Source: Myxococcales bacterium 68-20 | GTDB taxonomy: Bacteria; Myxococcota_A; Polyangia; Polyangiales; Polyangiaceae | Reading direction: 5' to 3' | Length of the DNA: 64,000 nucleotides | Assembly (NCBI GenBank): GCA_001899635.1 | Contig: MKVQ01000021.1 | Span: 61,395-125,394, forward strand | Part shown: positions 1,766 through 47,142 of the stretch, piece by piece | How positions within the stretch are numbered: the stretch's first letter is position 1 | How the letters are laid out: every line of letters starts with the position of its first letter | The notes under the pieces: generated by a model | What the model was told of the DNA's origin: nothing | Databases searched by the model: none | What the model saw: only the letters and a program-made list of their open reading frames with translations | Position numbers and translations under genes: made by a program

Positions 1766-2819
1766 ATGCGCGCTCGTGCGTGGGCGTTGGCGAGCGCGGC
1801 CGGGATCGCGGTCGCTTCGTGGCCTGCGCCGGCGAACGGCGCGCCCTTCGAGCTCGCCTGGTCGGCTCCGGCCGGCTGTCCGTCGCGCGAAGAGATCGTC
1901 GACGCGACGCTGGCGCGTCTCGGGGAGTCCCACTCCGAAGCCGCGCCGGAGCTCTTCGTGCAGGGGACGGTTCGAACGGTGAGCGGAGGCTTCGTGGTCA
2001 CGCTCGCGCTGAAGGATGCGTCGGGGCAAGCCCTCGGCGAGCGCGATGTCCGCGTCGAGCAGAAGAGCTGTGACACCGTCTCGGCCCCAGCGTCGCTGGT
2101 GCTCGCGATGATGATCGCGGTCGCCCTCCCCCGTGTCGAAGAGCGCGACGACACGGGTCGCGCACCCTCGCCGCGAAGAGCCCGCTGCTTCGCAGGAGCC
2201 GCCGGCAATGCCTCCCGCGTCCGTCGGCGCGCGGGAGCATCCGCCAGCATCTCCCGCACCGCCCGCATCCTCTCCTGCGGCGGCCCCGCCTCCGGCCCGC
2301 CTCTTGGTCGGTGCCGCGGGCGTGGCTTCGCTGGGCATCCTTCCAACCGCCGGTGCCGGTGCTGCGCTCCGTGCGATGTACGCGCCGAGATCGACGGTGC
2401 TCGTCGGGCTCGAGGCGAGCTTCGAGGCGGGCGGTTCCGTCCGTATCGGGGCCATCGGGGTCGGAGACATAGGGTTTCAACTCTTCAGTGCCGGCGCGCG
2501 CGTGGGGCTGCCGGTACTGCACAGCGATCGCTTCGAGCTCATCCCGACGCTCGGCGCGCGCGGCGGTCTGCTCCACACCTCACCGACCGGCTTCCCCGTC
2601 GTCAAGAACGAGACCCGTGCAACGATGCTGGCCGGCGCCGGGGTGCTCGTACGTGCCAGGCTTGGACAGCACCTCTTCGCGGAGGCTCTTCCCGAGGTCG
2701 AGGCTGTCCTGGTTCGCGACCGCCTGCGGATTCGTGACGGCGACAAGCTCTACCATGTCTTTCGGGCGAGCCCTTTCGAGGCGCGTCTCTCGCTCGGTCT
2801 CGGCTACGAGTTTCCTTGA
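1766..2819 (+). pseudogene. Frameshifted exported barrel-like protein, cassette copy 1
   Basis: The ATG at 1766 opens a protein with a signal peptide (cleavage likely after residue 26, ANG/A), followed by a domain containing conserved Cys residues. The reading is good up to about 2130 and then continues in the +1 frame to the stop at 2819. That second part has a Pro/Ala linker and a C-terminal half rich in alternating short beta strands, ending in GLGYEF like an outer-membrane barrel. The shift falls at or just after CCCTCCCCC (2124-2132), where one extra C would explain it. The intact paralogue at 36036-37055 has the same layout: signal peptide, Cys, a GER motif, a helix rich in Ala/Val, a Pro-rich linker and a beta-rich tail. 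So the gene is either a recent pseudogene, a sequencing error in a C run, or a phase-variable gene. Function unknown; a porin- or sensor-like envelope protein is inferred. Confidence 0.6.
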
Positions 2820-2862
2820 GCGACAGGAAACGACCGGCCTCGACATAAAAAGCGCGCGGCGC

Positions 2863-3423
2863 GTGCACAAACGGGAAGTGCACGCTTCGACCCTTCGGGT
2901 AGTCACCGTACGGGAGGCCGCTGGAGACGCGGCTGCTGCGCCCGTGACGATCGAAGCACTCTTCGCGGACTACGTCGGGTTCGTGTGGCGCAGCCTGAGC
3001 CACTTCGGTGTGGCGGAGGCCGACCTCGAGGACCAGACCCAGGAAGTCTTCATCGTCGCGCACCGCCAGCTCGCCCAGTACGACGTGCAGCATCCTCGGG
3101 CCTGGCTCTGCGGAATCGCGCGTCGCTGCGCCTCCGCGTATCGCCGCCGGAGTCATCGCCGGCACGAGTGCCCGGTCGAGAAGCTCCCCGAGAGCACCGA
3201 CGCGTCCGATCCTTCCCTTCGCGCGGAGCTCGACCTCCTGAGCCGGGTCTTCGCTTCGCTCGACGAGCAGCAGCAAGAGGTCTTCGTTCTCTACGAATTC
3301 GAAGAGATGTCGATGCGCGAAGTCGCCGAAGCTCTCCAGTGCCCGCTCCAGACCGCCTACACACGGCTCTACGCTGCGCGCCGCGAGCTCGCGCGCGCCC
3401 TCGCCCTAGAGGAGACGACATGA
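2863..3423 (+). CDS. RNA polymerase ECF-type sigma factor, cassette copy 1
   Basis: About 186 residues with the two domains of an extracytoplasmic-function sigma factor. Region 2 starts near FADYVGFVWRSL and includes the DLEDQTQEVFIVAHR signature, which contacts core polymerase and the -10 element. Region 4 is a helix-turn-helix around SMREVAEALQCPLQTAYTRL that reads the -35 element. The start is uncertain: GTG at 2863, 2878 or 2944 are all in frame and none has a strong Shine-Dalgarno sequence. The stop overlaps the ATG of the next gene (ATGA at 3420-3423), the usual arrangement for a sigma factor and its membrane-bound regulator. It probably controls the downstream lipoprotein genes, but I could not identify a promoter motif. 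The paralogue is at 37130-37819. Confidence 0.9.
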   Translation: MHKREVHASTLRVVTVREAAGDAAAAPVTIEALFADYVGFVWRSLSHFGVAEADLEDQTQEVFIVAHRQLAQYDVQHPRAWLCGIARRCASAYRRRSHRRHECPVEKLPESTDASDPSLRAELDLLSRVFASLDEQQQEVFVLYEFEEMSMREVAEALQCPLQTAYTRLYAARRELARALALEETT

Positions 3424-4235: not shown

Positions 4236-4258
4236 ACTCCTGATTGAGGGAGACCGAC

Positions 4259-5455
4259 ATGTTTCGAAGTATCGCGCGCGTAGGCGCGCCATTCACTCTG
4301 ATCGCGTCGGCCACGTTCACGTGGCTGTTCGCGGGCTGCGGGACCGACGTGACCATCGCCGAGACGCGAGACGCTGCGCCGCCGACCTTCGTGGCCCCGG
4401 ACGTCGCGACGACGGAGCCCCTGCCGGACGGGCTCACCGAGTATTGCCCTTCCAGCCAGTGCCCCGCCGGACACACGACGTGTCCGGGTTCGCGCTTCCC
4501 CTGTGAGGTGGATCTACGGACCGATCCGAACAACTGCGGCGCATGCGGCAACGTCTGTCCCGCACGAGGCGTGGACGAGACCTATGCGTGCGTCGACGGG
4601 CGCTGCGTGATGGCCTGCGACGTCGGCACGAAGGCCATGGATTGCGATGGCGTGCCCGACAACGGTTGCGAGACTCGTCCGAACCAAGACAACTGCGGCG
4701 CGTGCGGGAAGAAGTGCCTGAATCCCGCGAAGCCGTGTGTCGTCACGACAGGCGCCTGGCAATGTGGTTGCAACGGCAATGACCTCACCTGTCCGGTGGG
4801 CGACGGCTTCGAGTGTATCGACGGGCGCATGGACGACCGCAATTGCGGAGCATGCGGCAAAGTCTGCGATCCGTCCGGTGATGGCGGAGCCCCGCACGCC
4901 AATGCGTACTACGGCTGTGTCCAGAGCACGTGCGACCAGCCCAAATGCATCGGCGGCTTCGGCAACTGTGACGACGACATGTCCAACGGTTGCGAGACCG
5001 ATCTCGTCGACGACGCCAACTGCGGGGCCTGCGGAAATGCCTGTCCCACAAATACGAAGTGCGTTCTCGACGATTCGTTTCGGCCGTTCTGTGCGTGCCC
5101 GGGAGAGCAGACCTTCTGCCCAGATTTCTGCTTCGGCGAGGATTGCATGGGCAAGTGCTTCGACCTCACCGCGCATCCATACAACTGCGGCGGCTGCGGG
5201 ATCGAGTGCAACACTCCGCCGTACAGCGATCCCATCTGCAACTACGGAACATGCTCGTACGTCTGCAAGGGCGGACGGGCCGACTGCAACGGCAACCCCG
5301 CGGACGGCTGCGAGGTGAACACCCATAGCGACCCACGGAATTGCGGCGGCTGCGGCGTTGCCTGCGACACCGCCGCCGGTCAGGCGTGCGTCGCCGGCCA
5401 GTGCGTGGTCGAGCCATGCGACTCGATCCCGGACGGAGGAGTGACCGCCCGATGA
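4259..5455 (+). CDS. Cys-rich NCGxCG-repeat lipoprotein, cassette copy 1
   Basis: A 398-residue secreted lipoprotein. The signal peptide ends in the lipobox LFAGC and the +2 residue is Gly, compatible with outer-membrane sorting. The mature part contains six units built around NCGACG or NCGGCG followed by x-x-C, separated by stretches with further paired Cys and the recurrent DGCE/NGCE. This is the Cys-rich repeat type common in myxobacterial surface proteins and reminiscent of MopE-like proteins. The Cys pairs are probably disulphide bonded in the periplasm or on the surface. ATG 4259 was chosen over TTG 4244 because GAGGGAGA lies just upstream and the signal peptide starts there. The stop overlaps the next start (ATGA). 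The paralogue at 38642-39787 also has six units. No enzymatic function can be assigned. Confidence 0.8.
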   Translation: MFRSIARVGAPFTLIASATFTWLFAGCGTDVTIAETRDAAPPTFVAPDVATTEPLPDGLTEYCPSSQCPAGHTTCPGSRFPCEVDLRTDPNNCGACGNVCPARGVDETYACVDGRCVMACDVGTKAMDCDGVPDNGCETRPNQDNCGACGKKCLNPAKPCVVTTGAWQCGCNGNDLTCPVGDGFECIDGRMDDRNCGACGKVCDPSGDGGAPHANAYYGCVQSTCDQPKCIGGFGNCDDDMSNGCETDLVDDANCGACGNACPTNTKCVLDDSFRPFCACPGEQTFCPDFCFGEDCMGKCFDLTAHPYNCGGCGIECNTPPYSDPICNYGTCSYVCKGGRADCNGNPADGCEVNTHSDPRNCGGCGVACDTAAGQACVAGQCVVEPCDSIPDGGVTAR

Positions 5456-6657
5456 ACCCTCGAAGCTTGTTCTTGGTCGCGAGTGCCGCGGCGTGCACGT
5501 GCGTGATGGCACTCGGCGCCTGCGCGAACGACGGGGGCACGCTCGTCGTCGAGGAGCCTCGCGCGGAGGAGTCGGTCCCCGGCTCCGACAGCGGGATCGA
5601 TGCCGACGGCGATGCGGCCGCGCTCTGCACCGGCGACTGCGAGTACTTCCCCGACGACTGCGCCCCGGACGCCTTCTGCTCGAATGGACCGTTCGACCCG
5701 AGCACCATCGGCGGCGCGCTGAATCTGCGGACCCGGATCAACGTCGTTCGGGGTCGTTCTCAGAGTGACGTCTGGGTCGCCGGCGCAGTCGGGACGCTTG
5801 CTCACTTCGACGGCACGTCGTGGACGCGCACGCCGTCCGATACGAAGGAGACACTGCAGACGATCTGGCTCCGCGACTCCGAGGAGGTCGCGTTCGGGCG
5901 GCTCGATGTCCTCTATTCGCGCGGCGGCGCTCTCCCGGATGCGGGCGCTCCTTCCGCAGGCGGCTGGGCGCCCCGCACCATCGATGCGTTCCCTCCCGAA
6001 TGGCACTACCTGCCGGTACGGGTCACCGCCGCCTGGGCGCCGCCGGGCGCAGAGTGGCTCTGGATGGCGACGGACCCGGCCTATGCCTACCGCGGGCTCT
6101 GGCGTCTACGCGTGACTCCCTCGGGAACCTACGAGCTCGCGGTCGGCGCATCGACCGACCTGTGTTTGGCATTCTCGGCATGCGAGGTGACCAGCCTCCA
6201 CGGCAGCTCGGCGAGCGAGCTCTGGGCGGTGGGGTTGACCGGTACGACGGTCCGGATCACCGACGCGCAGAGCGGCTCGCCCTCGACCAAGGTCTTCAAC
6301 AGCCGGACGTGGAACGCGCTCCGCGGTGTGTGGGAGGCCTCGGCATCGGATGCATGGGCGGTCGGCGCAGCAGGCACCATCCGCCACTACACCGGCGATG
6401 CTCTGTTCTGGGAGGTCGTGAATGACGTCCCGACGACCGAGAACCTCAACGCCATTTGGGGTACGTCTTCTTCCGATATCTGGGTCGTCGGCGACAACGC
6501 GGTCATCCTTCACTACGACGGCAAGACATGGTCGCGTGTGAAAGTCGCGCGGCTCGGCGCGCGTCGGCCCGACCTCACCACCGTATGGGCCGCTGCTCCA
6601 GGTCACGTCTGGGTCGGTGGGGAGGGCGTCGTCCTTTCCCTTGGAGGGAAGCCATGA
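5452..6657 (+). CDS. Beta-propeller-like lipoprotein A, cassette copy 1
   Basis: A 401-residue lipoprotein. The signal peptide ends at LGAC, followed by an acidic low-complexity spacer and then a repeat domain. The repeats follow S-D-x-W-x-V-G-x-x-x-x-x-x-H-x-D-G-x-x-W, for example SDVWVAGAVGTLAHFDGTSW and SDIWVVGDNAVILHYDGKTW. About six such blades suggest a beta-propeller of the kelch/BNR-like kind often seen in myxobacterial surface proteins. A Cys-containing segment (CTGDCEYFPDDCAPDAFC) precedes the propeller. It is coupled to the Cys-rich gene upstream and to lipoprotein B downstream by 4-nt overlaps. It probably binds a partner or ligand at the cell surface, with no catalytic residues recognised. 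The paralogue is at 39784-40998. Confidence 0.75.
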   Translation: MNPRSLFLVASAAACTCVMALGACANDGGTLVVEEPRAEESVPGSDSGIDADGDAAALCTGDCEYFPDDCAPDAFCSNGPFDPSTIGGALNLRTRINVVRGRSQSDVWVAGAVGTLAHFDGTSWTRTPSDTKETLQTIWLRDSEEVAFGRLDVLYSRGGALPDAGAPSAGGWAPRTIDAFPPEWHYLPVRVTAAWAPPGAEWLWMATDPAYAYRGLWRLRVTPSGTYELAVGASTDLCLAFSACEVTSLHGSSASELWAVGLTGTTVRITDAQSGSPSTKVFNSRTWNALRGVWEASASDAWAVGAAGTIRHYTGDALFWEVVNDVPTTENLNAIWGTSSSDIWVVGDNAVILHYDGKTWSRVKVARLGARRPDLTTVWAAAPGHVWVGGEGVVLSLGGKP

Positions 6658-7982
6658 GAACGAGGTTCCTTCTCACGTGCGCGTCGCTCGCCCTCGCGGC
6701 AATCGCGGCGGCGGCATGCGCATCATCCGACGACGGAGAGGTGACGCAGCCCGAGCAGGGCCCGCCGACCGTACTCCCGGATGCGGGAACGACCGAGGCC
6801 GCGGCGGACGCGGCACCGGATGTCGAGCCAGAGCTCCCGCGATGCAGCGCGGCGGGCTGGTGCAAGACATCGCTCCCCGACTCCGACCTGGTGATGAAAG
6901 ACATCTGGCCGCTTCGGGACCGAGCCTTTGCCGTCGCGGAGAGCGCCACCATCGGCATCAAAGTCCTCGAGTGGGACGAGGCGACCGACGGCTGGAAGTA
7001 CATCGACGACGGAACCCAGAATGCAATCGGCTTTGGCAAGTACGTAGGCTCGGTCTGGGCCCCCAGCGCGGACGAGGTCTATTACGCCGTAGCACCGGGG
7101 ACCATCTATCGTGGGAAGCGACCCGTCCCACCCGCAACGGCATGGGAATGGACACGCCAGCGGCTCGAAGACAACAGCCACAAGGGCGAGCCCGCGCACG
7201 ACCCAAACCATGATCACGGGTCTCCGACCTACGGGCTTCGCAAATCCAACTACCCGGCGCTCGGGGTCTGGGGGACCGGCACCGACGATGTCTACGCCTG
7301 GTACTCGAACACGATCTTCCGGTGGAAGAGCGATGACGGCGGCGCACCTGCGTGGGTCGCCGAATACGTCGCGGACGACCACGACGGCGAGGACGAACAT
7401 CTGTTCTTCCTGTCTGCCGGAGGAAGTCGCGGCGACGTCTGGTTCTCCGGAGCGCGGGACCGCGGTGACGCGTTCACGAGCGGCAACACTTACAACTGTG
7501 CCGTCGCCGTACGCAGGACCTCCGAAAGCTATCGGCGGATCGCGGACGGCGTCGCCAGCACGGACCTCGCTCATCCATGCACCGAGAGAACGGGATTCCT
7601 CCACGTCGGCGGACCGGCCGGGTGGCTCACCGACATCCAGGCGGCGGGAACGGACCGCGTCGTGGCCCTCAAGGGGACGCGCCACGTCGCGCGGATCTCG
7701 CTGGAGGACGGCAACTACGCGGTCGACTTCTCCAACGTACCGACCAGGGAGCCGGCGACCCTCTACTCACTTTGGTGGGCGCCGGAGAACGTTTGGCTGA
7801 GCGGATGGGGAATCATCCTTCGGGGCAACGACCTCGTCGGAGACGCCGGAGCATACGACGTGTCCACCATCTCGCTCACCGGAGCCCCTCTCGCCACGCC
7901 GATGTACCGAATTCGAGGCACGGAAAGCACCAACCTCTGGGCAATCGGAGAGCGCTATGCGCTTCACAAGACGACTCCTTGA
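6654..7982 (+). CDS. Beta-propeller-like lipoprotein B, cassette copy 1
   Basis: A 442-residue lipoprotein. The signal peptide MRTRFLLTCASLALAA ends in an AAAC lipobox, and an acidic/Ala-rich spacer follows. The motif CSAAGWCKTSLPDSD then precedes a domain with repeated W-x-S-x-D-E/D-V-x-Y and GTGTDDVYAWYSN-like strands, consistent with a diverged propeller. The entry motif DWCKTPLP in the paralogue at 40995-42233 matches WCKTSLP here, which supports pairing the two genes. The ATG overlaps the stop of lipoprotein A by 4 nt. No enzyme motifs are visible. The lipoprotein signal argues for attachment to the outer membrane. Confidence 0.7.
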   Translation: MRTRFLLTCASLALAAIAAAACASSDDGEVTQPEQGPPTVLPDAGTTEAAADAAPDVEPELPRCSAAGWCKTSLPDSDLVMKDIWPLRDRAFAVAESATIGIKVLEWDEATDGWKYIDDGTQNAIGFGKYVGSVWAPSADEVYYAVAPGTIYRGKRPVPPATAWEWTRQRLEDNSHKGEPAHDPNHDHGSPTYGLRKSNYPALGVWGTGTDDVYAWYSNTIFRWKSDDGGAPAWVAEYVADDHDGEDEHLFFLSAGGSRGDVWFSGARDRGDAFTSGNTYNCAVAVRRTSESYRRIADGVASTDLAHPCTERTGFLHVGGPAGWLTDIQAAGTDRVVALKGTRHVARISLEDGNYAVDFSNVPTREPATLYSLWWAPENVWLSGWGIILRGNDLVGDAGAYDVSTISLTGAPLATPMYRIRGTESTNLWAIGERYALHKTTP

Positions 7983-9423
7983 ACCGAACTGGACGGAGTC
8001 CAGCATCGCTGGACAGAGTCCGGTGAGGAACGAGAAGGCTCGGCGGAGGCCGAGCCGAATTGAACGCCGCGCCTCGGCAGCGCTCGTGATCCTCGCCTGT
8101 GCGACTGCCGGCAGCATGTCCGCGAGTTGCTCGAGCAAGGGTGATGAGCAACGGCCACTCGAGTCGACCGACGCCGGGTCCGACGCGACCATCACGCCGG
8201 GCGACGCCGGCCCCGATGCCTCGCCATTCGACGCGGCTGTACGCGACGCGGCCCCGTTCGACGGAGGACCGCTCGCGATCGTCTGCACGGAGCCTCCTTG
8301 CGCGAAGTCGCTCGTGACGACGCTCCGCGCGAACGGCAGCGACCGCGGCGAAGGCTTCTGCGCGTTGCTCGACGACGGGACGGTTGCGTGTTGGGGGGCA
8401 AACCTCGGTGGCCAGCTCGGTCGCGGCGAGGACGCCGGCTCCGATGACAGCTCGGTCCCCATGCGCGTCGCGGGCCTCTCGGAGGTCATCCAGCTCGATC
8501 ACACGTGTGCGGTCGACAAGAGCGGTGAGACGTGGTGCTGGGGGACGGGGCCCTTCCTTCGAAGCACCACCCAGGCTTGGACCCTGGAGCGGACGCCGGT
8601 GAAGCTCCCCATTCCGCCGGCGACGCGCGTGGCCATGGGCGAGTGGACGGCATGCGCCGTCGTGAGTGACGGCGTCATCTGCTGGGGAGAGAACCGGCAC
8701 GGCCAAGTCGCACCGATCGTGCCCGCCACTCGCTATGCCGCCCACCCCCCGCGCGCGATCGAGCTGCCTGCGGCAGCGCCCATCCGCGACCTCATCGTCG
8801 GCAACGCATCGTTCGCTCTCCGCGAGGACGGCACGGCCGTGAGCTGGGGCTCGAGTGCTTCGATTGGGCGCGTGTCGTCGATCTTCCCGGACCCGTACGC
8901 CGCGCCGGTCGAGCTCGACGGTGTCGCTTCGATCGACATCGTCGGCGAGGACGTCTGCGCTGCGGCTGCAGGGAGTGGATACTGCTGGGGACCGGTCGTC
9001 CCGAAGCCCAACGGCTCGACCGACGAAGGTCCTCCGATCGGACGCGCGCTCCCTGAACCGGCGCTCGTGCCCGAGCCCGTCGTTCAGGTCGCCGTGACGC
9101 GCACCGCCGTCATCTACGGCGCCGGTAGCCCGCTCGTGGAGCCATACCGGTGGTGTGCCGTCGCCGCCGAGGGCCACGTGTACTGCTGGGGCGCCAACGC
9201 TAGTGGTCAAGCGGGGGACGGGACCAAGGAGTACGCGTTCGAAGCCGTGTTGACCAAGGGGCTCCCAGCTCCCGCCGTGCAGGTGAAGACGATGCCATCC
9301 TCGACATGCGCGCTGCTGACGACAGGCAAGATCTTTTGTTGGGGCAGCAACTTCTATGGACAGCTCGGGAATGGCGGGCCCAAGGGAGCGAGTGTCGTTC
9401 CGCAGGAAGTGGTGCTGCCATGA
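7957..9423 (+). CDS. RCC1-repeat lipoprotein, cassette copy 1
   Basis: Up to 488 residues. After an Arg-rich n-region and a hydrophobic segment, a lipobox SMSASC leads into a Thr/Asp-rich spacer. The rest is made of RCC1-type blades, seen as CWGANLGGQLGRG, CWGENRHGQV, CWGANASGQAGDG and CWGSNFYGQLGNG. About seven such units should close one propeller. ATG 7957 overlaps the preceding gene by 26 nt and has GGAGAG six bases upstream. GTG 8023 lies after the upstream stop and would still keep the signal peptide, so the start is not settled. The stop overlaps the next ATG by 4 nt. The likely role is protein binding at the surface. The paralogue is at 42230-43687. Confidence 0.8.
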   Translation: MRFTRRLLEPNWTESSIAGQSPVRNEKARRRPSRIERRASAALVILACATAGSMSASCSSKGDEQRPLESTDAGSDATITPGDAGPDASPFDAAVRDAAPFDGGPLAIVCTEPPCAKSLVTTLRANGSDRGEGFCALLDDGTVACWGANLGGQLGRGEDAGSDDSSVPMRVAGLSEVIQLDHTCAVDKSGETWCWGTGPFLRSTTQAWTLERTPVKLPIPPATRVAMGEWTACAVVSDGVICWGENRHGQVAPIVPATRYAAHPPRAIELPAAAPIRDLIVGNASFALREDGTAVSWGSSASIGRVSSIFPDPYAAPVELDGVASIDIVGEDVCAAAAGSGYCWGPVVPKPNGSTDEGPPIGRALPEPALVPEPVVQVAVTRTAVIYGAGSPLVEPYRWCAVAAEGHVYCWGANASGQAGDGTKEYAFEAVLTKGLPAPAVQVKTMPSSTCALLTTGKIFCWGSNFYGQLGNGGPKGASVVPQEVVLP

Positions 9424-11207: not shown

Positions 11208-11210
11208 GCT

Positions 11211-20538: not shown

Positions 20539-20638
20539 GCAACGCGGGTCGTACCCCAACTGTTTGCTCCGCGCACCCCCCGCCCGGACGATCGGATGAG
20601 CTCGCTCGGCGCGCCCGGTTTTCTCGTATTCTCCACCC

Positions 20639-34580: not shown

Positions 34581-34683
34581 CCCTCAACGTCGACGCCCGA
34601 TGAGCCGACGCCATCCGGCAAGCAGGCACCGTCAGGCGTTCTCCACGGTTCTCTCGGGCCCGCTTCGTCGTTAGAGTCGTTAC

Positions 34684-37055: not shown

Positions 37056-37129
37056 AGCTTCGAGCCGAACCGGCCAACAACGAGAGGACCCCGCGCTCGG
37101 ATGCCGACCCGGCAGGTCCTCGATGCCTC

Positions 37130-38601: not shown

Positions 38602-38641
38602 GACACGGGGCACCTGAATTTTCGGTGAAGGGATCTCGACC

Positions 38642-39787: not shown

Positions 39788-40998
39788 GGACGCGCAGCAT
39801 CGACGTTCGACAGAGAGCTGTTCTCCTCATGGCAGCGCTCGTGCTCGGCGCACGCACGGTCGGATGCGCGGCCGGTACGGAGAAGCCGGACGAGACCGAG
39901 AGCCCGCTCGGCGACGGCGGCGAGCCTCTCCCGGAGGCCGGAGCGGTGGACGCTTCGACGTCGGTCGATGGCTCGCCGGACGCCGGTGATACGCCGGCGA
40001 ACGAGCACTGCAGCGAAGACGGCTGGTGCCGTGTGGACATGCCCGACGACAAGGCGGCCCTCTATGGCATCTGGGGGAGCGGGCCCAACGACGTCTGGAC
40101 CGTTGGCTCGAATGGAGCCGTCTTCCACTGGGATGGCACCAAGTGGAGCGCTCAGCGCGTCGAGACCGCTGCCGGGCAGCCGAGGCCGCTCTACGGCATC
40201 TGGGGGAGCGGGCCCAACGACGTTTGGGCCATCAGCGGCACCGAGCTCTATCATTCGAACGGCTGGACGGACCAAGGGGCGAACTTCTCGAAGTTCGAAG
40301 TCATCAAGCGCACCGGCCAATTCGCGTTTTTGCCGGTTGCCTTGCGCGGTGTCTGGGGCAGCGGCTCCACGGATGTCTGGGTGCTCCAGGCCACGACCGG
40401 CTCGCCCGGGGCGGCTCCGTTCGACAAGTGCTCGCGCACCGAGGGGTGGGGATCCGGAGAGCCGAAGCTGACCGCGGCGTTCGCAGATCGATCCCCGACC
40501 AAGGGATTGAACCTCGCGGCGATGTGGGGCACCGGCGCGCGCGACATCTGGATGGTCGGCGAGTCGGGCCGAATCTTCCACTCGGATGGCCACTGGGGTG
40601 GATCGGTGGAATGGATTCAGGCCAACAGCAACACGCGCACACATCTGCACGCCGTCTGGGGGACGAGGGCCGATGATGTCTGGGCCGTAGGCGACAACGG
40701 CACGGTCCGTCATTTCACGTACGACGAGGGCGGCGAGCTCCTCTGGACGATCGAAGACACGAAGACGACGAACGCCCTGCGCGCGGTCTGGGGGAGCAGC
40801 GCCACGGATGTATGGGCCGTCGGCGACGAGGGCACCATCCTGCACAGTGACGGTTCGAGCTGGTCTCGCTCGCGGGTCCCGTCGCTACCGCCACAGGCGA
40901 CGCTCTACGGCGTCTGGGGGAGCGGCCCCGATGACGTCTGGGCCGTGGGACACCACGTCCTTTTGCATCGAAGCGGTCCGACTGGAGGAGTGAAATGA
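39784..40998 (+). CDS. Beta-propeller-like lipoprotein A, cassette copy 2
   Basis: A 404-residue lipoprotein with lipobox ARTVGC. After an acidic spacer and the entry motif HCSEDGWCRVDMP come repeated blades of the form LYGIWGSGPNDVWTVGSNGAVFHWDGTKW. The DNA for two neighbouring blades retains near-identical 40-bp stretches (40062-40101 and 40191-40230), with a third similar one near 40911, so blade duplication was recent or is maintained by gene conversion. About six or seven blades make a propeller. It overlaps both neighbouring genes by 4 nt. The paralogue is at 5452-6657. A binding or scaffold role is inferred. Confidence 0.75.
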   Translation: MRTRSIDVRQRAVLLMAALVLGARTVGCAAGTEKPDETESPLGDGGEPLPEAGAVDASTSVDGSPDAGDTPANEHCSEDGWCRVDMPDDKAALYGIWGSGPNDVWTVGSNGAVFHWDGTKWSAQRVETAAGQPRPLYGIWGSGPNDVWAISGTELYHSNGWTDQGANFSKFEVIKRTGQFAFLPVALRGVWGSGSTDVWVLQATTGSPGAAPFDKCSRTEGWGSGEPKLTAAFADRSPTKGLNLAAMWGTGARDIWMVGESGRIFHSDGHWGGSVEWIQANSNTRTHLHAVWGTRADDVWAVGDNGTVRHFTYDEGGELLWTIEDTKTTNALRAVWGSSATDVWAVGDEGTILHSDGSSWSRSRVPSLPPQATLYGVWGSGPDDVWAVGHHVLLHRSGPTGGVK

Positions 40999-42233
40999 TC
41001 CGAACGAACCTGCGAGCGATGGGTACGCGAGGAGCGCTCCTCCTCGTCGCCGGCTGCTCGGCGGCCGCGCTCTTGCTCTTCGCATGCGCGAACGATGGCG
41101 GCCAGGCTCCGGAATCGACGCCCCAAGACGACGGTGGCGCGACCGTGCCGGGCGATGCCTCGCGAGCGGATGACGTCCTCGACGGCGCCGCGGATGGGAA
41201 CGGCGAGCCTGGCGACGCAGGCGATTCAGGTGACGCGGGGATCGAGGATCCCTGCACCGTGGACTGGTGCAAGACACCGCTGCCGATTCCGGACGGCGGG
41301 AAGCTCACGCTCGTGGGCGTCTGGGTGCCGGGGCCGAACGATGCCTGGGCCGTCAGTGAGGAGGGGCTCGTCCTTCGCTGGAACGGGACGCTGTGGTCGG
41401 TCGTATGGGACGCAGGAAAGCCCCTCTACAACGTGTGGGGCGACCATGAAGGCACCCTGTGGGCCGTCGGTGGTCAGGGGTCGATCTTCCACGCTCCCGG
41501 TGGGACGAACTGGACGGCGATCCCGAGCGGCGTCACGACCGATCTGATGGGCATCTGCGAGGGAGCCCGCGACGCGCAGCACCCACGCAACATCTCCATC
41601 GTCGGTTGGTCGGGCACCGTCCTCCGGTGGAACGGCGACACCGGAGCGGACGGCAAGCCCTCGTGGGCCACGTCGACACCGGGCGCGAGCCTCCAGCTCC
41701 ACGACGTATGGTGCGCGGGCTTCGATGTCTGGGTCTCTGGATACTCGGGGGCAGCGCCTTTCGGGGGCGCCCTCTTCCTCGGCAGCGACGCGGGCTGGGA
41801 GCGTCAGAGCGTCATGAACGGCAAGGAACGCGACAGCGAGGACTACCAGTGGGGCGAGACATTCTCCTCGGTCTGGGCCCACGAGCGGCAGAACGTCTGG
41901 GCGCGCGGAGAGGTCGGCATCACTCGCGGAACGGCGAGCCTCGCCGATCCTGCCTTGAAATGGTCGCGGGAACGCTCGGTCACGGACGGCTACGGCGTCA
42001 AGCGCGCCTCCGATATCTGGGGTACCGGGCCGAACGATCTCTGGTTCGTGTCGTCGGTCGGTAGGATCCATCACTGGAACGGCTCGACCCTCGCGATCAC
42101 GGCCACCACCAACACCTGGGACGTGCTCGCCAACAATCTGCGCGCGGTCTCCGGGAGTGGTCCCGACGACGTGTGGGTCGTCGGCGACAACATTGCCCTG
42201 CACCGCAACGTCAAGAAGGGCGCTCAGAAGTGA
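40995..42233 (+). CDS. Beta-propeller-like lipoprotein B, cassette copy 2
   Basis: A 412-residue lipoprotein. Signal and lipobox read AAALLLFAC. An Asp/Gly-rich spacer is followed by CTVDWCKTPLPIPDGG and a set of blades (VWVPGPNDAWAVSEEGLV, IWGTGPNDLWFVSSVGRIHH, VSGSGPDDVWVVGDNIALHR). The WCKTPLP entry motif matches WCKTSLP in the protein at 6654-7982. The last codons overlap the GTG of the next gene (GTGA). No catalytic motif was recognised. Confidence 0.75.
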   Translation: MIRTNLRAMGTRGALLLVAGCSAAALLLFACANDGGQAPESTPQDDGGATVPGDASRADDVLDGAADGNGEPGDAGDSGDAGIEDPCTVDWCKTPLPIPDGGKLTLVGVWVPGPNDAWAVSEEGLVLRWNGTLWSVVWDAGKPLYNVWGDHEGTLWAVGGQGSIFHAPGGTNWTAIPSGVTTDLMGICEGARDAQHPRNISIVGWSGTVLRWNGDTGADGKPSWATSTPGASLQLHDVWCAGFDVWVSGYSGAAPFGGALFLGSDAGWERQSVMNGKERDSEDYQWGETFSSVWAHERQNVWARGEVGITRGTASLADPALKWSRERSVTDGYGVKRASDIWGTGPNDLWFVSSVGRIHHWNGSTLAITATTNTWDVLANNLRAVSGSGPDDVWVVGDNIALHRNVKKGAQK

Positions 42234-43687
42234 TCGCAATCCTCCACACCTCTCCCGCTTCGACGGCGCGTTGCGCTGCTCTGATCGCCCTTCTGTCCGC
42301 AGGAGTGCTCTCGGCAGCATGCTCGGACGGGAAGGATGTCACGGTCCGCGTCATCGACGATGGAGGCGGCGCCGCCGACAGCGCGCTCGACGCGGGTGAA
42401 GGTGCAGGTGAAGGTGAAGGCGACGCCGGCGTCGAGGGCGACGCCAGCGCGCACGCGCCCGAGTTCTCCGGCGAAGTCACGTGCACGGTCTCGCCGTGCG
42501 TCACCGCGCTCTCGGCCAGGGGCGGCAGTCACATCTGTGCACTCCTCTCCGACAAGACCGTTCGCTGCTGGGGAAGCAACTCGAGCGGCCAGCTCGGAGC
42601 GGAGACGCCGCTGACGGACGACGCCGGTGCAGGGGGCGGTGGGGCTTCTGGCGGGCCGTACTCCGGCAAGCCCGTGGCGGTCGCGAACCTTGCGGACGTC
42701 ACGCAGATCAGCGTGTCCGGCGGCAGCGGTGGAACGAGCTGCGCGCGCGTCTCGGACGGCTCCGTCATGTGCTGGGGCTCCAACACGTTTGGCCAGCTCG
42801 GGATGGGCGCCGATCGAGTCATCGCCGACGCGGTTGCGCATACGAGTGCTGCGCGCGTCCAAGGGCTGCCGCTTGCCAGCCGCGTCGACGTGGCCGGCGC
42901 GTTTGCGTGTGCGGTCGGCGAGCTCGGGCCGGATGGCGAAGGCAGCAGCATGTTTTGCTGGGGCGGCAACTCGGTCCTGCAGCTCGGACGCGGGTACCTG
43001 CCGAGGCAGAACGGTGTCGCCGGTCCCGTGAACCTCCGCTACCACCGCGTGCTCGCAGGGGCCGGGACGACGCGCGTCGGCTTCGCGCTGGGGGACGACG
43101 GTGACGTCCTTTCTTGGGGCGGGGCCGAGTGGAACGTCACCGATGCCACCAAGAGGGACGCGTTGGCGCGAGAGACCTCGTTCTCGCCCGACGGAGATCC
43201 TCGAGAGATCCCCCGGCTTCATCACGTCACGCGGATCGTCGCCGGAGACGGGCATGCCTGCGCGCTCTCCCAAGGCACCGTGTATTGCTGGGGACGAAAC
43301 ACGACCGGAGCGGTCGGCAACAGCTCGAGGCTCGATGTCTTTGCCCCGTTTCCCGTCGCTCTGATGGGCGCCCGCTCGATCCGGGAAATGGCCGTGAGCA
43401 ACCTCACGACCTGCGCAGCCGATGAGCGAGGTCGTGCCTATTGCTGGGGCGACAACACGAGCGGGCAACTCGGCAGCGGCGACGCCGAGCCGACGCTTCT
43501 TCCGGTCGCCGTCGAGGGGCTGAAGAAGGACGCCCGCGTCGTTCAGCTCGCGACGATGGACAAGGCAACGTGCGCGCTCCTCGAGGATGGCTCGGTGCAG
43601 TGCTGGGGTAGCAATGCCCTGGGGCAGCTCGGAATCGGCACGAAAGACGATCTCCCGCACCACGCCCCGCAGACGGTCGTCTTCTGA
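42230..43687 (+). CDS. RCC1-repeat lipoprotein, cassette copy 2
   Basis: A 485-residue lipoprotein starting at GTG 42230, whose last two bases begin the upstream stop. The signal peptide ends VLSAAC. A Gly/Glu/Asp spacer precedes the motif VTCTVSPCVTALSARG, comparable with VCTEPPCAKSLVTTLRANG in the protein at 7957-9423. RCC1 blades follow: CWGSNSSGQLGAE, CWGSNTFGQLGMG, CWGGNSVLQLGRG, SWGGAEWN, CWGRNTTGAVGNS, CWGDNTSGQLGSG, CWGSNALGQLGIG. Seven blades fit one closed propeller. Surface protein-binding role inferred. Confidence 0.82.
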   Translation: MIAILHTSPASTARCAALIALLSAGVLSAACSDGKDVTVRVIDDGGGAADSALDAGEGAGEGEGDAGVEGDASAHAPEFSGEVTCTVSPCVTALSARGGSHICALLSDKTVRCWGSNSSGQLGAETPLTDDAGAGGGGASGGPYSGKPVAVANLADVTQISVSGGSGGTSCARVSDGSVMCWGSNTFGQLGMGADRVIADAVAHTSAARVQGLPLASRVDVAGAFACAVGELGPDGEGSSMFCWGGNSVLQLGRGYLPRQNGVAGPVNLRYHRVLAGAGTTRVGFALGDDGDVLSWGGAEWNVTDATKRDALARETSFSPDGDPREIPRLHHVTRIVAGDGHACALSQGTVYCWGRNTTGAVGNSSRLDVFAPFPVALMGARSIREMAVSNLTTCAADERGRAYCWGDNTSGQLGSGDAEPTLLPVAVEGLKKDARVVQLATMDKATCALLEDGSVQCWGSNALGQLGIGTKDDLPHHAPQTVVF

Positions 43688-43729
43688 CTCTCCCGGCGAA
43701 AGAGCGCATTCATTTTCGAGGATGTACAC

Positions 43730-45619
43730 ATGAGAACGCGTCGTACGAGCGGATCTTCCACCCAGTCGCGCGGATGGTTTACACGGCGTACGATCGCGTC
43801 GTGGGGCTTCGCGATCGCCTGTGGAGCCAGCCTCATGGTCGCCTGCGCGACGGATCGTCCGTCGTTCGTCGAGAAGGAGAACACCGGTACCTTCGAGGAA
43901 GCCGATGCTCGGAGCGACGCATGTGAGACCTTCGTTTGCTCTCGAGACCTCCATTCGGTCCTGAGCAGCTGCTCCGGCGAGGTCGTTCGCGAATGCCCTC
44001 CTGACATGGGATGCGCGAACGGAGCGTGCGTGCCCGCGTGCTCGAGCGCCGAGAGCAACGAAGGAACGATCGGTTGCTCCTTCTGGACGACTCCCGCCGT
44101 CGCGACGGGGGGGGCCGTGTCCGGCTACATCAAGCAGGACCACCGCAGCTCCTGCTTTGCCGCCGTCGTCGCGAACACCTGGAGTCGGCCCGTGAACATT
44201 CGGGTCGAGCACATGGGGAAACCGCTCGATCTCTCGCGGAGCATGGCGATCCCGCGCACGAGCGGGAACCAGGTGGACTACGAGGTCCTCGACGGCCCGC
44301 TTCCCGCCGGGGAGGTCGCCGTCGTGTTCCTGTACCAGAACCTCGTCCCACCGCCCAGCGCCAACGCCCACGTCGCTTGCCCGCTGCCGGCAGCACTGGA
44401 GTCGGAGGACCCCACGATACCCATCTCCTCGGGGGTGGGCGCTGCATTTCACATTGCCACGGACATGCCGGTCAGCACCTATTCGATTTTCCCGTATGGC
44501 GGCGCGGAGAGTTATATCCCCACCGCGACGGTCCTCTTGCCGACCAGCTCGTGGGACACGAAGTATCTCGCCGTGGACGGGTGGGATCCGAACGATCGCG
44601 GGATATCGCCGCAGGTGCCCACGATTCAAATCGTCGCCGCGCAGGACGATACGGAAGTCCGGATTCGTCACGACAGCAGCAAGCTCCTGGGGTCGACAAC
44701 GAGCAGCGACGGCCGTTCGCAAGTCTTCAAGCTCGCGAAGGGTGAGGTTCTCCAGTTTGCCGTACATCAACAACTCGCGGGAGCCCCGATCGAGTCCGAC
44801 AAGCCGATCGGGCTCTTTGGCGGGTCGAACTGCTCGATCTTTCCCCCCTTCTTCGGGATGTGCTGTTGCGACGTCACGCAGCAACAGATTCCGCCTGTTC
44901 GTGCGTGGGGGAACGAATATGCAGCCGTTCGCTACGAGAACCGAAGGACGCTGCGCCTGAGCGAGGACAACGCCGACCGAGCCGTGCAGGAGTCGGCCCC
45001 TTGGCGTCTCATCGGAGCCGTCGACGGCACGAAGCTGGAGTATCAGCCCAGGCGCCCCGAGGGCGCGCCTGTCACTCTCTCGCAAGGTGAGGCGGTGACG
45101 TTCTGGACGATCGAGCCCTTCATCGTCAAGAGCCAGGACGAACAGCACCCTTTCTACATGGCCGGCTACATGTCGAGCTCCAACTTTGGTGATGGATCGG
45201 GATCGCCGGCAAGGCAGATCGGGGATCCCGAGTTCGTCAACGTCGTCCCCGCACGGCAATACCTCGATGCCTATACGTTCTTCACGGACATGACGTACGG
45301 CTACACGACCCTGGTCGTCGTCCGTCAGGACCGCGGGAATGGATTCGAGGACGTGACCCTCGATTGCGCAGGGACGATCACGGACTGGAAGCCGATCGAC
45401 GCCCAGGGGCAATTTCAGTACGCCCGCGTCACGCTCGTGCGCAAGGGCGAGCCGCAGCAGTTCGCTGCCGGCACCTGCACCAACGGGCGACACGAAATAC
45501 GAAGCAAGGAGCCGTTTGGGCTCACCGTGTGGGGGCTCGATGTCGCTTCCAGCTATGCCTATCCGGGCGGCGCAGGGCTCCGTCCGATCTCCAGTGTTCC
45601 CATCTCAGTGCCGCGCTAG
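43730..45619 (+). CDS. IgGFc-binding-like surface lipoprotein, cassette copy 2
   Basis: A 629-residue protein with GAGGATG upstream of ATG 43730. A long basic n-region precedes the hydrophobic segment and lipobox SLMVAC. The Cys module (CETFVCSRD ... CSGEVVRECPPDMGC ... CVPAC) and the beta-rich body (YGGAESYIPTATVLLP, VDGWDPNDRG, VAAQDDTEVRIRH, PIGLFGGSNCS) align with the protein at 9420-11207. It ends SYAYPGGAG plus a short tail. The stop TAG at 45617-45619 lies inside the first CTAG of the palindromic element that follows, so insertion of that element may have set the present 3' end. Adhesin or scaffold role inferred. Confidence 0.8.
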   Translation: MRTRRTSGSSTQSRGWFTRRTIASWGFAIACGASLMVACATDRPSFVEKENTGTFEEADARSDACETFVCSRDLHSVLSSCSGEVVRECPPDMGCANGACVPACSSAESNEGTIGCSFWTTPAVATGGAVSGYIKQDHRSSCFAAVVANTWSRPVNIRVEHMGKPLDLSRSMAIPRTSGNQVDYEVLDGPLPAGEVAVVFLYQNLVPPPSANAHVACPLPAALESEDPTIPISSGVGAAFHIATDMPVSTYSIFPYGGAESYIPTATVLLPTSSWDTKYLAVDGWDPNDRGISPQVPTIQIVAAQDDTEVRIRHDSSKLLGSTTSSDGRSQVFKLAKGEVLQFAVHQQLAGAPIESDKPIGLFGGSNCSIFPPFFGMCCCDVTQQQIPPVRAWGNEYAAVRYENRRTLRLSEDNADRAVQESAPWRLIGAVDGTKLEYQPRRPEGAPVTLSQGEAVTFWTIEPFIVKSQDEQHPFYMAGYMSSSNFGDGSGSPARQIGDPEFVNVVPARQYLDAYTFFTDMTYGYTTLVVVRQDRGNGFEDVTLDCAGTITDWKPIDAQGQFQYARVTLVRKGEPQQFAAGTCTNGRHEIRSKEPFGLTVWGLDVASSYAYPGGAGLRPISSVPISVPR

Positions 45620-45815
45620 TACCGAGTGCCCCAAGTTCGTGCGGGGTACCGCACGAAGCGATGCTTCGCATCGCGCACTCGGTCCTAGTCTTTCATCGGG
45701 GCTCCGCCCCGCACTCCTCGCTTCGCTCGTCGTCCCCGCAATTCGCTCCCGCGAATTGCCCTAGTACGGCGCAGCTACGTCCAACCCCTCACGAACATTC
45801 GGCGCGCCGTACTAG
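45616..45815. repeat. Palindromic CTAG-bounded repeat element
   Basis: A 200-bp block of nested inverted repeats with CTAG at its ends and inner boundaries. Unit 1 (45616-45688) has a nearly perfect 14-bp outer stem (CTAGTACCGAGTGC with GCACTCGGTCCTAG). The stem encloses two perfect hairpins, TTCGTGCGG/CCGCACGAA and GCGATGC/GCATCGC, giving a cloverleaf shape. Then come GGGGC/GCCCC and a perfect 9-bp hairpin GCAATTCGC/GCGAATTGC (45738-45759). Unit 2 (45761-45815) is closed by CTAGTACGGCGC/GCGCCGTACTAG. No gene is encoded. It resembles a mobile REP/MITE-type element or a pair of them; that class is inferred. Confidence 0.65.
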
Positions 45816-45873
45816 TCGAAGCGGAATGGCCATGATCGGCGCAACAGCGTTTGCGCCTCAGCGAGCGTTATCC

Positions 45874-47142
45874 ATGACCAAGTTGCACCTGAAGACGTTC
45901 TCGGCGGCATGCGTTCTGATCCGGCTCCTGGTCGGGTGCAGTAGCGATCCGGATGCGCCTGCCAACACCACGGCTCCGCCGGATGGCGATCAGGACTCCG
46001 GCTCGAGTGGTGTCGATGCGGGCGGCATCGATGCGCACGTCGAGGACGACGCGGCGGCCGACGCTGCGCCCGACCGCCGGATCGAGTGGGACAGCGGCGG
46101 CGACGCCGGAGCGCCTGTCGTCCACGAGATGTGGGCACGCGGGAACGCCTTCTGTGCCCGCGTGCAGCGGCCGAGCGGGACGACGGTGGAGTGCTGGGGA
46201 AACAATACCTCTGGCGAGCTCGGGCGCGGCGAGGTCACCACGATTCTCACGAGGGGAACGACGTTCAAGCCGTTTCCAATCGACTCTCCGGACGCGCCGA
46301 ACTTCAGGGTGGTACGGGGCTCGAGCAACCTGGGCAGCGTCATGTGCGGCGTCACGAACGACGACGAGCTGAAGTGCTGGGGAGCGACCTACGGCTCGAG
46401 CGCCGTGAGATCGAGTGTTCCCGCCGAGCCGCTGCGGACCGGCGTCGCTGACGTCTCCGTCGGCCCGAATCACGCCTGTGCGCTCTTGACCGACTCCCGT
46501 GTCGCCTGCTGGGGCTCGAACACGTACGACGGCCTCCTGGGGATGGGGACCTCGGGGGGCCTGGTCCAGCCCGTGCCGCAGGTGATCCCGAACTTCACGG
46601 CGGACCAGGTATCGAGCGGCGTTACCACCACTTGTGCCGTGAAGGACGGCGAAGTCTGGTGCTGGGGAGCCGGTCATCTGACGGGCAACGGTTCGCTGTT
46701 CAATCCGGTCACCAGCCCGACGCGCGTTGCCGGACTGACCGGCATCAAGAAGGTTCAGGCCCACACCTATACGTTCGCCCTCGCGGAGGACAAGACGCTG
46801 TGGTTCTGGGGGTCGGGACCGGGGAGCGCGCTGTCGTATACCCCGATGAAGGTCCCCGATCCGACGCCCGATGACCCGAATCGGGTCATGTCCGACGTCG
46901 AGGACGTTGCCGGGGACTGCCTCCGGTTCACGAACGGCAAGGTCCGGTGCCTCTCGGTCACCGGCGCCACCTACCGCTTCAACGAGATGCCGCGCGTCAG
47001 CGACGCGGTGCGCCTCGAGCCTTTCTGCGCGTTGAGCTCGGCGGGAACGCTCCGCTGCTGGGGGGCCAACGCCGCCGGGCAGCTTGGGGTGCCTCCGACC
47101 CTGCTCCCGAGCGCGCCGGCGTCCGTCGAGGTCAAGCTCTGA
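45874..47142 (+). CDS. Extra RCC1-repeat lipoprotein, cassette copy 2 only
   Basis: A 422-residue protein. ATG 45874 begins MTKLHLKTFSAACVLIRLLVGC, a lipoprotein signal. ATG 45826 is an alternative that would add 16 residues and weaken the signal. The spacer is Asp/Ala-rich, and RCC1 blades follow: CWGNNTSGELGRG, CWGATYGSSA, CWGSNTYDGLLGMG, CWGAGHLTGNG, FWGSGPGSAL and CWGANAAGQLGVP. One blade lacks the CWG core (VRCLSVTGATY). It is separated from the IgGFc-like gene by the palindromic element and has no counterpart in copy 1. It may be a tandem duplicate of the RCC1 gene at 42230 displaced by the element, or an independent gain. Confidence 0.78.
   Translation: MTKLHLKTFSAACVLIRLLVGCSSDPDAPANTTAPPDGDQDSGSSGVDAGGIDAHVEDDAAADAAPDRRIEWDSGGDAGAPVVHEMWARGNAFCARVQRPSGTTVECWGNNTSGELGRGEVTTILTRGTTFKPFPIDSPDAPNFRVVRGSSNLGSVMCGVTNDDELKCWGATYGSSAVRSSVPAEPLRTGVADVSVGPNHACALLTDSRVACWGSNTYDGLLGMGTSGGLVQPVPQVIPNFTADQVSSGVTTTCAVKDGEVWCWGAGHLTGNGSLFNPVTSPTRVAGLTGIKKVQAHTYTFALAEDKTLWFWGSGPGSALSYTPMKVPDPTPDDPNRVMSDVEDVAGDCLRFTNGKVRCLSVTGATYRFNEMPRVSDAVRLEPFCALSSAGTLRCWGANAAGQLGVPPTLLPSAPASVEVKL

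What the first reader, a model, noticed from the sequence alone, without database searches (positions are those of the whole stretch)
1766..47142. A complete sigma-led surface lipoprotein cassette occurs twice
Eight consecutive genes at 1766-11207 (barrel-like, ECF sigma, membrane regulator, Cys-rich lipoprotein, propeller A, propeller B, RCC1, IgGFc-like) are matched one for one, in order and orientation, at 36036-45619. Proteins are diverged but share specific signatures: SVxxLPSA and NGxxVxERE in the regulator, six NCGxCG units, the WCKT(P/S)LP entry motif, VCTEPPC/VTCTVSPC before the RCC1 blades, and SYAYPGG at the IgGFc-like C-terminus. I know of no named system with this composition. The likely reading is a sigma/anti-sigma-controlled outer-membrane lipoprotein complex that exists as a family with different specificities.
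Basis: partly seen in the sequence, partly recalled or inferred. Interest (0 to 1): 0.88.

Follow-up and report, generated by a model that had tools for sequence, protein, structure and literature searches.

The report
Mix-and-match bacterial surface gene cassettes
One myxobacterial genome carries 129 full or partial copies of this gene cassette, about a tenth of its DNA, and the cassette's three-gene control half has been swapped again and again between five-gene halves predicted to make surface lipoproteins, which would likely let the cell rewire which signal switches on which surface coat.

Summary
The two cassettes are real, but "twice" misses the point. The window's genome (11.9 Mb) holds 129 clusters of four or more of these genes, 99 with the exact order barrel-sigma-regulator-Cys-propeller-propeller-RCC1-IgGFc; together they take 1.19 Mb (10.0%). 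Copies are diverged (median 20-41% protein identity), nearly all intact, and at unrelated sites. The exact order recurs in 21 of 30 fetched same-genus loci and 0 of 30 loci of other genera.

The cassette is two modules. Barrel, sigma and regulator (head) share one history; the five lipoprotein genes (body) another. Gene trees within a module share 34-52 of 96 splits; head and body trees share 1 (chance 0-1). Bodies 80-90% identical sit behind unrelated heads, with junctions about 110-290 bp past the regulator stop and at the IgGFc stop. At least two swaps separate species.

Most likely reading: the head is a predicted envelope sensor that switches on its body through its own ECF sigma factor, and recombination re-pairs sensors with surface coats. 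Sensing, sigma control and surface display are inferred; copy number, modularity and shuffling are shown. Nine paper searches found no description.

The parts
1766..2819 (+). Cassette A, head gene B: secreted N-domain plus predicted small outer-membrane barrel; split over two frames (1766 frame, then 2133-2819 frame)
   Evidence: family profile hits in both frames, 4e-33 and 1e-44 (the profile may include this gene's own ORF)
2755..3423 (+). Cassette A, head gene S: ECF sigma factor (start codon uncertain, may lie after 2819)
   Evidence: Pfam Sigma70_r2 and r4; TIGR02937
3420..4235 (+). Cassette A, head gene R: membrane regulator, anti-sigma-like by position
   Evidence: alignment with partner; profile family
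4259..5455 (+). Cassette A, body gene C: Cys-rich NCGxCG lipoprotein
4345..4525 (+). Cassette A, where head-body junctions would fall (110-290 bp past the R stop), projected from other cassettes
   Evidence: 46 of 50 pairs
5452..6657 (+). Cassette A, body gene P1: propeller-type lipoprotein
6654..7982 (+). Cassette A, body gene P2: propeller-type lipoprotein
   Evidence: pairwise E only 0.014
7957..9423 (+). Cassette A, body gene K: RCC1-repeat lipoprotein
   Evidence: Pfam RCC1
9420..11207 (+). Cassette A, body gene I: IgGFc_binding-domain lipoprotein
   Evidence: PF17517 E 5e-104
36036..37055 (+). Cassette B, head gene B: N-domain plus predicted 8-stranded barrel
   Evidence: model, OmpA-like matches
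37056..37129 (+). Cassette B, gap between barrel and sigma, where other cassettes carry a promoter-like element
   Evidence: 29 of 91 gaps; this cassette is not among the rows printed
37130..37819 (+). Cassette B, head gene S: ECF sigma factor
37816..38601 (+). Cassette B, head gene R: membrane regulator with helical TPR-like C-terminal domain
38654..39787 (+). Cassette B, body gene C: Cys-rich lipoprotein, MXAN_6577-like
   Evidence: NF041328 98.7 bits, cut-off 100; Stig1 43.8 bits, cut-off 24.1
38843..45619 (+). Cassette B body tract homologous to cassette C42:245k of the same genome (75% mean protein identity) whose head is unrelated; left edge to within a few bases
39784..40998 (+). Cassette B, body gene P1
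40995..42233 (+). Cassette B, body gene P2
42230..43687 (+). Cassette B, body gene K: RCC1
43730..45619 (+). Cassette B, body gene I: IgGFc_binding
   Evidence: PF17517 E 1.5e-89
45874..47142 (+). Cassette B, optional ninth gene: second RCC1 protein, travelling with the body in one relative
   Evidence: 85% DNA identity over 1,297 bp downstream of I with C42:245k

Best explanation
The window holds two of 129 cassettes (99 complete), built of a head (barrel, sigma factor, regulator) joined to a body (five predicted surface lipoproteins); heads and bodies have been reassorted, so each head likely senses a cue and is predicted to switch on whichever body it now carries. Shown here: the copy number, the conserved order, the mostly intact reading frames, the two separate histories and the junctions. 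Inferred: the barrel (B) with its periplasmic N-domain is the envelope sensor; R holds the sigma factor S until B or R is engaged; free S then transcribes S-R-C-P-P-K-I, probably from a promoter in the B-S gap; the five lipoproteins are displayed together as one surface assembly that binds or recognises something outside (prey, kin, polymer or another surface). Recombination, favoured between neighbouring cassettes, moves complete bodies under new heads and so rewires which cue displays which coat.
For: Copy number: 141 PF17517 matches in the own genome, 0 in 14 control genomes; 128 B, 125 S, 124 R, 129 C, 253 P, 138 K, 142 I in the fetched 1.86 Mb, 129 clusters of >=4 genes, 99 exact BSRCPPKI, 1,185,956 bp = 9.97%. 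Intact: among cluster ORFs that hit the profile, coverage >=0.8 in 120/120 S, 118/119 R, 127/129 C, 248/253 P, 127/134 K, 129/131 I, 109/112 B (a gene split like the window's first barrel can escape this count). Two modules: Spearman of pairwise identity B-S .44, B-R .39, S-R .47; within body .71-.83; across -.05 to .08, against 30 permutations each with maxima .03-.13. Trees: 40-47 shared splits of 96 within head, 34-52 within body, 1-2 between single head and body genes, 0-1 in 20 relabellings. I data on the head tree lose 19,454 log units, S data on the body tree 6,128. Bodies at 80-90% with heads at background, and the converse. Junctions: 46 of 50 body pairs begin 109-290 bp past the R stop, 48 of 50 end within -16 to +39 bp of the I stop (pairs share members, so they are not independent). 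Across species: L176 body 91.7% DNA to cassette 72, head matches cassette 127 (69.5%); L174 head 83.7% to cassette 9, body 81% to cassette 98. The 17 neighbour pairs within 15 kb share bodies (.53 vs .38, 0 of 5000 resamplings) more than heads (.30 vs .27). Order in 21 of 30 same-genus loci. Some rearranged loci keep an inverted head beside the body. Lipobox 50-82 of 99 in body genes, 0-5 in head genes. B model: N-domain and eight long strands, OmpA-like. Directional TTTTCGTGAT-like element (<=2 mismatches) in 29 of 91 B-S gaps versus 3 on the other strand and 1-6 of 99 in other regions.
Against: I have no expression, protein or binding data. R has no Pfam hit that names it an anti-sigma factor, nor an NCBIfam hit for cassette B's R, the only one scanned there. 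Models are weak (mean pLDDT 65 for B, 63 for R) and rest on 10-11 sequences; Foldseek gave no match at E <= 0.001 for B. The promoter-like element was picked after seeing the same data and is missing in about two thirds of gaps; the two-block motif search beat its shuffles but only three were run per clade, and the best motif differed between clades. Some joint inheritance remains: S-C correlation .08 exceeds its permutation maximum .03, and the best body partner ranks in the top 5 for the head in 11 of 99 (5 expected). At least three bodies (C42:274681, C23:259618, C31:7184) have no head found beside them. Third-position identity is not raised at the junctions and I found no shared DNA motif there, so the mechanism of exchange is unknown. 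Of five cross-species candidates tested on DNA, L170 proved colinear and L171/L185 ambiguous. The genome is a 52-contig assembly with 4.2% estimated contamination.
Confidence: 0.62

Rival explanations
1. Switchable-coat (identity or antigenic variation) system: most cassettes are silent at any time and bodies act as recombination donors, so lineages change coat; the sigma heads merely enforce which one is on.
For: Large divergent repertoire, whole-body exchange with sharp junctions, preference for neighbours.
Against: Most bodies have their own sigma and regulator (125 S and 124 R beside 129 C), mostly intact, and no single expression site was seen; no site-specific recombination signal seen.
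Confidence: 0.2
2. Parallel nutrient- or polymer-sensing units, as in Bacteroidetes polysaccharide loci: each head senses one substrate and the body captures it; shuffling is a by-product of recombination between paralogs with little function.
For: ECF sigma plus membrane regulator plus predicted outer-membrane barrel plus lipoproteins; propellers and RCC1 folds can bind ligands (general knowledge).
Against: No TonB-dependent receptor, SusD-like protein, hydrolase or transporter in the Pfam results for the window's 17 cassette proteins; barrel is predicted small, 8-stranded.
Confidence: 0.13
3. Selfish, mobile operon that copies itself around the genome.
For: 129 clusters, dispersed, mostly unrelated flanks, PF17517 counts 0 to 141 within one genus.
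Against: No transposase or integrase among the window's 17 cassette proteins (flanks were not scanned for them); no common flanking repeat (40 of 4,851 upstream and 17 of 4,851 downstream pairs match); copies are diverged and mostly intact; orthologous cassettes persist between species.
Confidence: 0.03
4. No exchange: whole cassettes duplicated and the heads simply evolve much faster.
For: Heads are less conserved on average than bodies.
Against: Heads have their own strong tree (40-47 shared splits) and head-similar pairs have unrelated bodies, e.g. S 69% with I 37%; the DNA homology stops abruptly inside gene C.
Confidence: 0.01
5. Assembly or binning artefact: repeats misjoined heads to wrong bodies or foreign contigs were added.
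For: 52 contigs, 4.2% contamination; some contigs begin or end inside cassettes.
Against: Among the 11 body pairs compared on DNA the most alike still differ by 12%, so they should not collapse in assembly; complete head-plus-body orthologs are recovered in another species' assembly (L166-L169); the order recurs in 21 of 30 same-genus loci.
Confidence: 0.01

Closest known systems
Bacteroidetes ECF-sigma/anti-sigma controlled SusCD-type surface lipoprotein loci (recalled)
   Same: Many paralogous loci per genome, each with its own sigma and membrane regulator beside surface lipoprotein genes.
   Different: No SusC/TonB receptor or SusD in the window's cassettes; body made of Cys-rich, propeller, RCC1 and IgGFc proteins; heads and bodies reassorted; different phylum.
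FecA-FecR-FecI type cell-surface signalling (recalled; PMC4598750 and PMC8999054 seen only as search listing and start of abstract)
   Same: Outer-membrane barrel, membrane regulator and ECF sigma inherited together.
   Different: Barrel predicted small and not TonB-dependent; regulator lacks a FecR hit; output is five lipoproteins.
PF17517 IgGFc_binding proteins of Myxococcota
   Same: Body gene I belongs to this family, found in 213 of 377 sampled genomes of the phylum, own genome included.
   Different: At 30 of 30 fetched loci of other genera the gene stands without the cassette.
MXAN_6577-like Cys-rich proteins (NF041328)
   Same: Body gene C of cassette B resembles them (98.7 bits, cut-off 100).
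   Different: C is about 380 residues, versus a 145-position model, and travels in the cassette.
Phase-variable shufflons and gene-conversion antigen systems such as Borrelia vls (recalled)
   Same: Paralogous surface modules exchanged by recombination.
   Different: Here the exchanged unit is a five-gene body joined to full regulatory heads at about a hundred loci; no invertase sites seen.

Membership tests
IgGFc_binding (PF17517) | Score above the Pfam gathering cut-off | tested here: met
   348 and 301 bits against 25.6
ECF sigma factors | Regions 2 and 4, TIGR02937 above cut-off | tested here: met
   65.7 and 64.2 bits against 42.9
Named ECF subfamily | Any equivalog or subfamily model above its cut-off | tested here: inconclusive
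   the best 25 of 79 and of 78 models shown are below cut-off apart from the superfamily model; the rest were not listed
Anti-sigma factor | Recognisable anti-sigma domain | tested here: not met
   no Pfam family for R at E 0.1 except one sub-cut-off winged-helix hit; none in NCBIfam for cassette B's R
Anti-sigma factor | Cytoplasmic N-terminus, one membrane helix, gene next to sigma | tested here: inconclusive
   81 of 99 have a hydrophobic 17-mer, median at 25% of length; 124 R beside 125 S in the fetched blocks; topology and sigma binding untested
Anti-sigma factor | Binds and inhibits the cognate sigma factor | not testable with these tools
   needs a bench assay
FecARI cell-surface signalling | TonB-dependent receptor with signalling N-domain, FecR-type regulator | tested here: not met
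   no such Pfam hit in the window's cassettes; small barrel model
SusCD loci | SusC- and SusD-family genes | tested here: not met
   no such Pfam hit in the window's cassettes
Outer-membrane small barrels (OmpA/OmpX type) | 8-stranded transmembrane barrel | tested here: inconclusive
   eight long strands in the model, Foldseek probability 1.00 but best E 1.4e-3, TM 0.28 by query length, pLDDT 65
Lipoproteins (body genes) | Signal peptide with lipobox cysteine | tested here: met
   C 64, P1 81, P2 82, I 80 of 99 by a simple rule, K only 50; head genes 0-5 of 99
Known anti-phage defence systems | PADLOC model hit | tested here: not met
   0 hits for the 8 proteins of cassette B
Site-specific shufflon | Conserved recombination sites at junctions, dedicated recombinase | tested here: inconclusive
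   junctions spread over about 180 bp, no common motif seen; recombinase not searched for

The most novel reading that the evidence does not exclude
This is a combinatorial signal-to-surface repertoire: more than a hundred sensor-sigma heads and more than a hundred multi-protein surface coats, kept in one genome and continually re-paired by recombination at a fixed join, so that evolution (perhaps even a growing population) rewires which outside cue displays which coat, for recognising prey, kin or surfaces.
Probability: 0.4. Interest if true: 0.95.

Novelty: categorically new. Interest (0 to 1): 0.88.

Why it matters
A tenth of a bacterial genome spent on one undescribed, eight-gene surface system is unusual in itself. 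That its regulatory and structural halves have separate genealogies across about a hundred loci makes a general question testable: how do bacteria evolve new signal-output wiring while keeping over a hundred parallel sigma circuits apart? It supplies a natural library of co-inherited sensor-sigma-regulator sets for orthogonal gene control, and a candidate recognition system in little-studied myxobacteria.

Tried and rejected
Pairwise BLASTP alone would have left barrel and propeller-B pairs unproven; family profiles were used instead. The first cluster counts lost regulators because ORFs overlap; repeated with other overlap rules and stop coordinates. Cross-species best hits first suggested a swap at L170; DNA comparison showed full colinearity with cassette 59, and L171/L185 matched two bodies almost equally, so only L174 and L176 are claimed. 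Raised synonymous conservation at junctions: not seen. Common flanking element: not seen. Promoter motifs: k-mers in the B-S gap gave a lead, a two-block search per sigma clade was weak. Solved-structure search with the IgGFc pair: none at E 0.1. Genome-contig scan with the barrel alignment: no relative; with the IgGFc pair 16 loci. Own-genome search for PF04542 scored 150 of 250 candidates, so the total number of sigma factors is not claimed. The phylum search scored at most about 6 candidates per genome, so first-look numbers are quoted for it; the order search with R scored 28 per genome. 30 of the 129 clusters were left out of the module statistics because they lack the exact eight-gene string. 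The printout 'perm max of 200' is mislabelled: 30 permutations were run. Gene-gap lengths printed depend on a crude start-codon rule and are not used.

Papers: nine searches (listings and abstract starts only) gave nothing on this cassette; in PMC3696898 passages were read: it reports sigma-factor and kinase families in Sorangium, and 'RCC1' and 'lipoprotein' do not occur in its main text. Most subscription papers are not in that library and no bioRxiv preprints are held as such.
Full report
OBSERVATION. The eight genes at 1766-11207 and 36036-45619 are real, colinear and on one strand. Six of eight pairs align significantly; the barrel and second-propeller pairs do not. Pfam recognises the sigma factors, RCC1, IgGFc_binding (PF17517) and Stig1 (above cut-off in cassette B only); it gives no family above cut-off for the barrel, the regulator or the propellers. 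I write the cassette as B-S-R-C-P1-P2-K-I.

COPY NUMBER. The window lies at G000:C21:61395-125394 of an 11.9-Mb, 52-contig genome. PF17517 matches 141 places in it and none in 14 control genomes. I fetched all places with up to 11.5 kb upstream (116 blocks, 1.86 Mb), built profiles from the window's own pairs and iterated them on these blocks. Result: 128 B, 125 S, 124 R, 129 C, 253 P, 138 K, 142 I; 129 clusters of four or more genes spanning 1,185,956 bp (9.97% of the genome); 99 with the exact string BSRCPPKI, median 9.43 kb. Among the other 30 are clusters that lack a propeller or RCC1, carry extra RCC1 or IgGFc genes, or have the head inverted or the barrel moved but still adjacent (e.g. 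C4:444619- SR beside C4:437708+ CPPKI; C48:186425+ barrel after the cassette); at least three bodies (C42:274681, C23:259618, C31:7184) have no head found beside them. Among cluster ORFs that hit the profiles nearly all cover them. An own-genome search with the R alignment gave 146 hits, 25 outside these blocks, five of them within about 3 kb of a contig end; heads without this body may exist.

DISTRIBUTION. Among 38 genomes (own and relatives) PF17517 occurs in 32, with 0 to 47 first-look candidates in the other same-genus genomes; in a phylum sample in 213 of 377, the next highest first-look number after 144 being 27. Of 30 same-genus loci fetched (29 picked because they hold C, one, L191, because it holds IgGFc), 21 have the exact order; the other nine are cut by contig ends (L162, L172, L190), lack one propeller (L166), have an extra RCC1 between R and C (L171, L185), an inverted head (L178, L189) or IgGFc alone (L191). 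None of 30 loci from other genera has the cassette: 22 show only IgGFc, eight also one to three other cassette-type genes, among them head genes at L196, L203, L206, L213 and L218. R-type regulators occur in 69 of 96 genomes of the order, own included, with 1-16 hits in the others that have any (at most 28 candidates scored each). So R at least is an older, order-wide part and the full cassette looks like a genus-level invention. Contig lengths equate G003 with Labilithrix sp. ACE_MYX5 and G006 with ACE_MYX7 (inference from equal lengths); Labilithrix belongs to Polyangiales. Named ACE_MYX5/7 records show the same order, but they are partly the same loci.

TWO MODULES. For the 99 exact cassettes, median pairwise protein identity is B 20, S 32, R 25, C 41, P1 30, P2 24, K 32, I 40%. 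Identities of B, S and R correlate (.39-.47), those of C, P1, P2, K and I correlate (.71-.83), and across the blocks the correlation is -.05 to .08; only S-C (.08, permutation maximum .03) exceeds its permutations. The nearest relative is the same cassette for 47-52 of 99 within the head, 46-64 within the body, 2-10 across. Trees agree within and not between modules, and likelihood differences are very large (1000 resamplings, fewer than IQ-TREE advises; the individual gene trees also reject their own module's joint tree, by only 120-151 log units).

JUNCTIONS. Cassettes C17:56k and C40:512k have P1 .88, K .90, I .89 but B .21, S .31, R .26; C41:144k and C44:217k have S .69, R .54, B .53 but I .37, P2 .21. 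Of 11 body pairs compared by BLASTN, nine give one body tract of 6.8-7.0 kb at 78-88% identity and two a broken one; none matches in the head; one has a flank match, to a neighbouring cassette's end. The tract begins in the 5' part of gene C, in 14 of the 16 pairs printed just before the conserved YCPSxxCPxGxTTCP segment, and ends at the I stop. Head tracts of five pairs run from B to 50-490 bp past the R stop. The exchange thus appears to keep the head's own C signal peptide and swap the rest. The window's cassettes show it too: cassette A's best head partner (C16:79k) ranks 37th for the body, its best body partner (C37:47k) 62nd for the head; cassette B's body is 75% identical to C42:245k, which ranks 92nd of 98 for the head. 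Flanks of cassettes are mostly unrelated. Neighbours within 15 kb share bodies more than expected.

BETWEEN SPECIES. Some sister-species cassettes are orthologs throughout (L166, 84-93% for seven proteins; L167, 86% DNA over 9.8 kb). Others are re-paired: L176 has a body 91.7% identical to cassette 72 but a head like cassette 127; L174 has the head of cassette 9 (83.7%) and a body like cassette 98 (81%), the two homologies overlapping at 4294-4371, inside C. Of 24 cassettes with all four best hits, S and R point to one partner in 21, I and K in 15, S and I in 11; many of the discordant ones are weak and I claim only the two above.

MECHANISM. B: secretion signal, small N-domain, disordered linker, eight long strands, OmpA-like (low confidence). 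R: N-terminal helices, hydrophobic stretch in 81 of 99, disordered linker, helical C-domain whose profile hits BamD TPRs (E 6.5e-6; model). S: ECF. Because B, S and R are inherited as one unit although B's product is predicted to lie in another compartment, B most likely belongs to the signalling path rather than to the coat (inference). A directional TTTTCGTGAT-like element precedes S in 29 of 91 gaps, which fits a promoter for S-R-body and would leave B on its own promoter (inference). Body proteins often carry lipobox signals. What the coat binds is unknown; recognition or adhesion is my guess from the fold types.

NOVELTY. None of nine paper searches nor PADLOC named such a system. The components are known fold families; the assembly, its amplification and the head-body reassortment are, to my knowledge, undescribed, within the limits of an open-access library.

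Noticed in passing
window 1766-2819: The barrel gene of the first cassette continues in another frame near a C5 run at 2128-2132; real frameshift, phase variation or assembly error cannot be told apart here.
   Followed up: partly
window 45874-47142: A second RCC1 gene follows cassette B; seven other or same-type clusters also carry trailing RCC1 genes (strings ending IK or IKK), and DNA there matches downstream of C42:245k.
   Followed up: partly
G000 C1:71977, C23:273803, C34:80797, C40:174802 and others (25 R hits outside the fetched blocks): Regulator-type genes away from the IgGFc loci; they may control other outputs or mark cassettes lost at contig ends.
   Followed up: no
L171 and L185: In two sister species an extra RCC1 gene sits between head and body of what looks like the same cassette.
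   Followed up: no
G380, G240, G369, G383, G245 (same class, family f16): Another family has 22-27 PF17517 first-look candidates per genome, but no such cassette at the one locus fetched from each of G380, G240 and G369 (L202-L204): perhaps a separate expansion.
   Followed up: no
window 11275-16956, 19087-20925, 32871-35868: An ordinary RND efflux set (OEP, AcrB-type, HlyD-type) and a histidine kinase lie on the minus strand between the cassettes; a Ser/Thr kinase and a PAS histidine kinase precede cassette B.
   Followed up: partly
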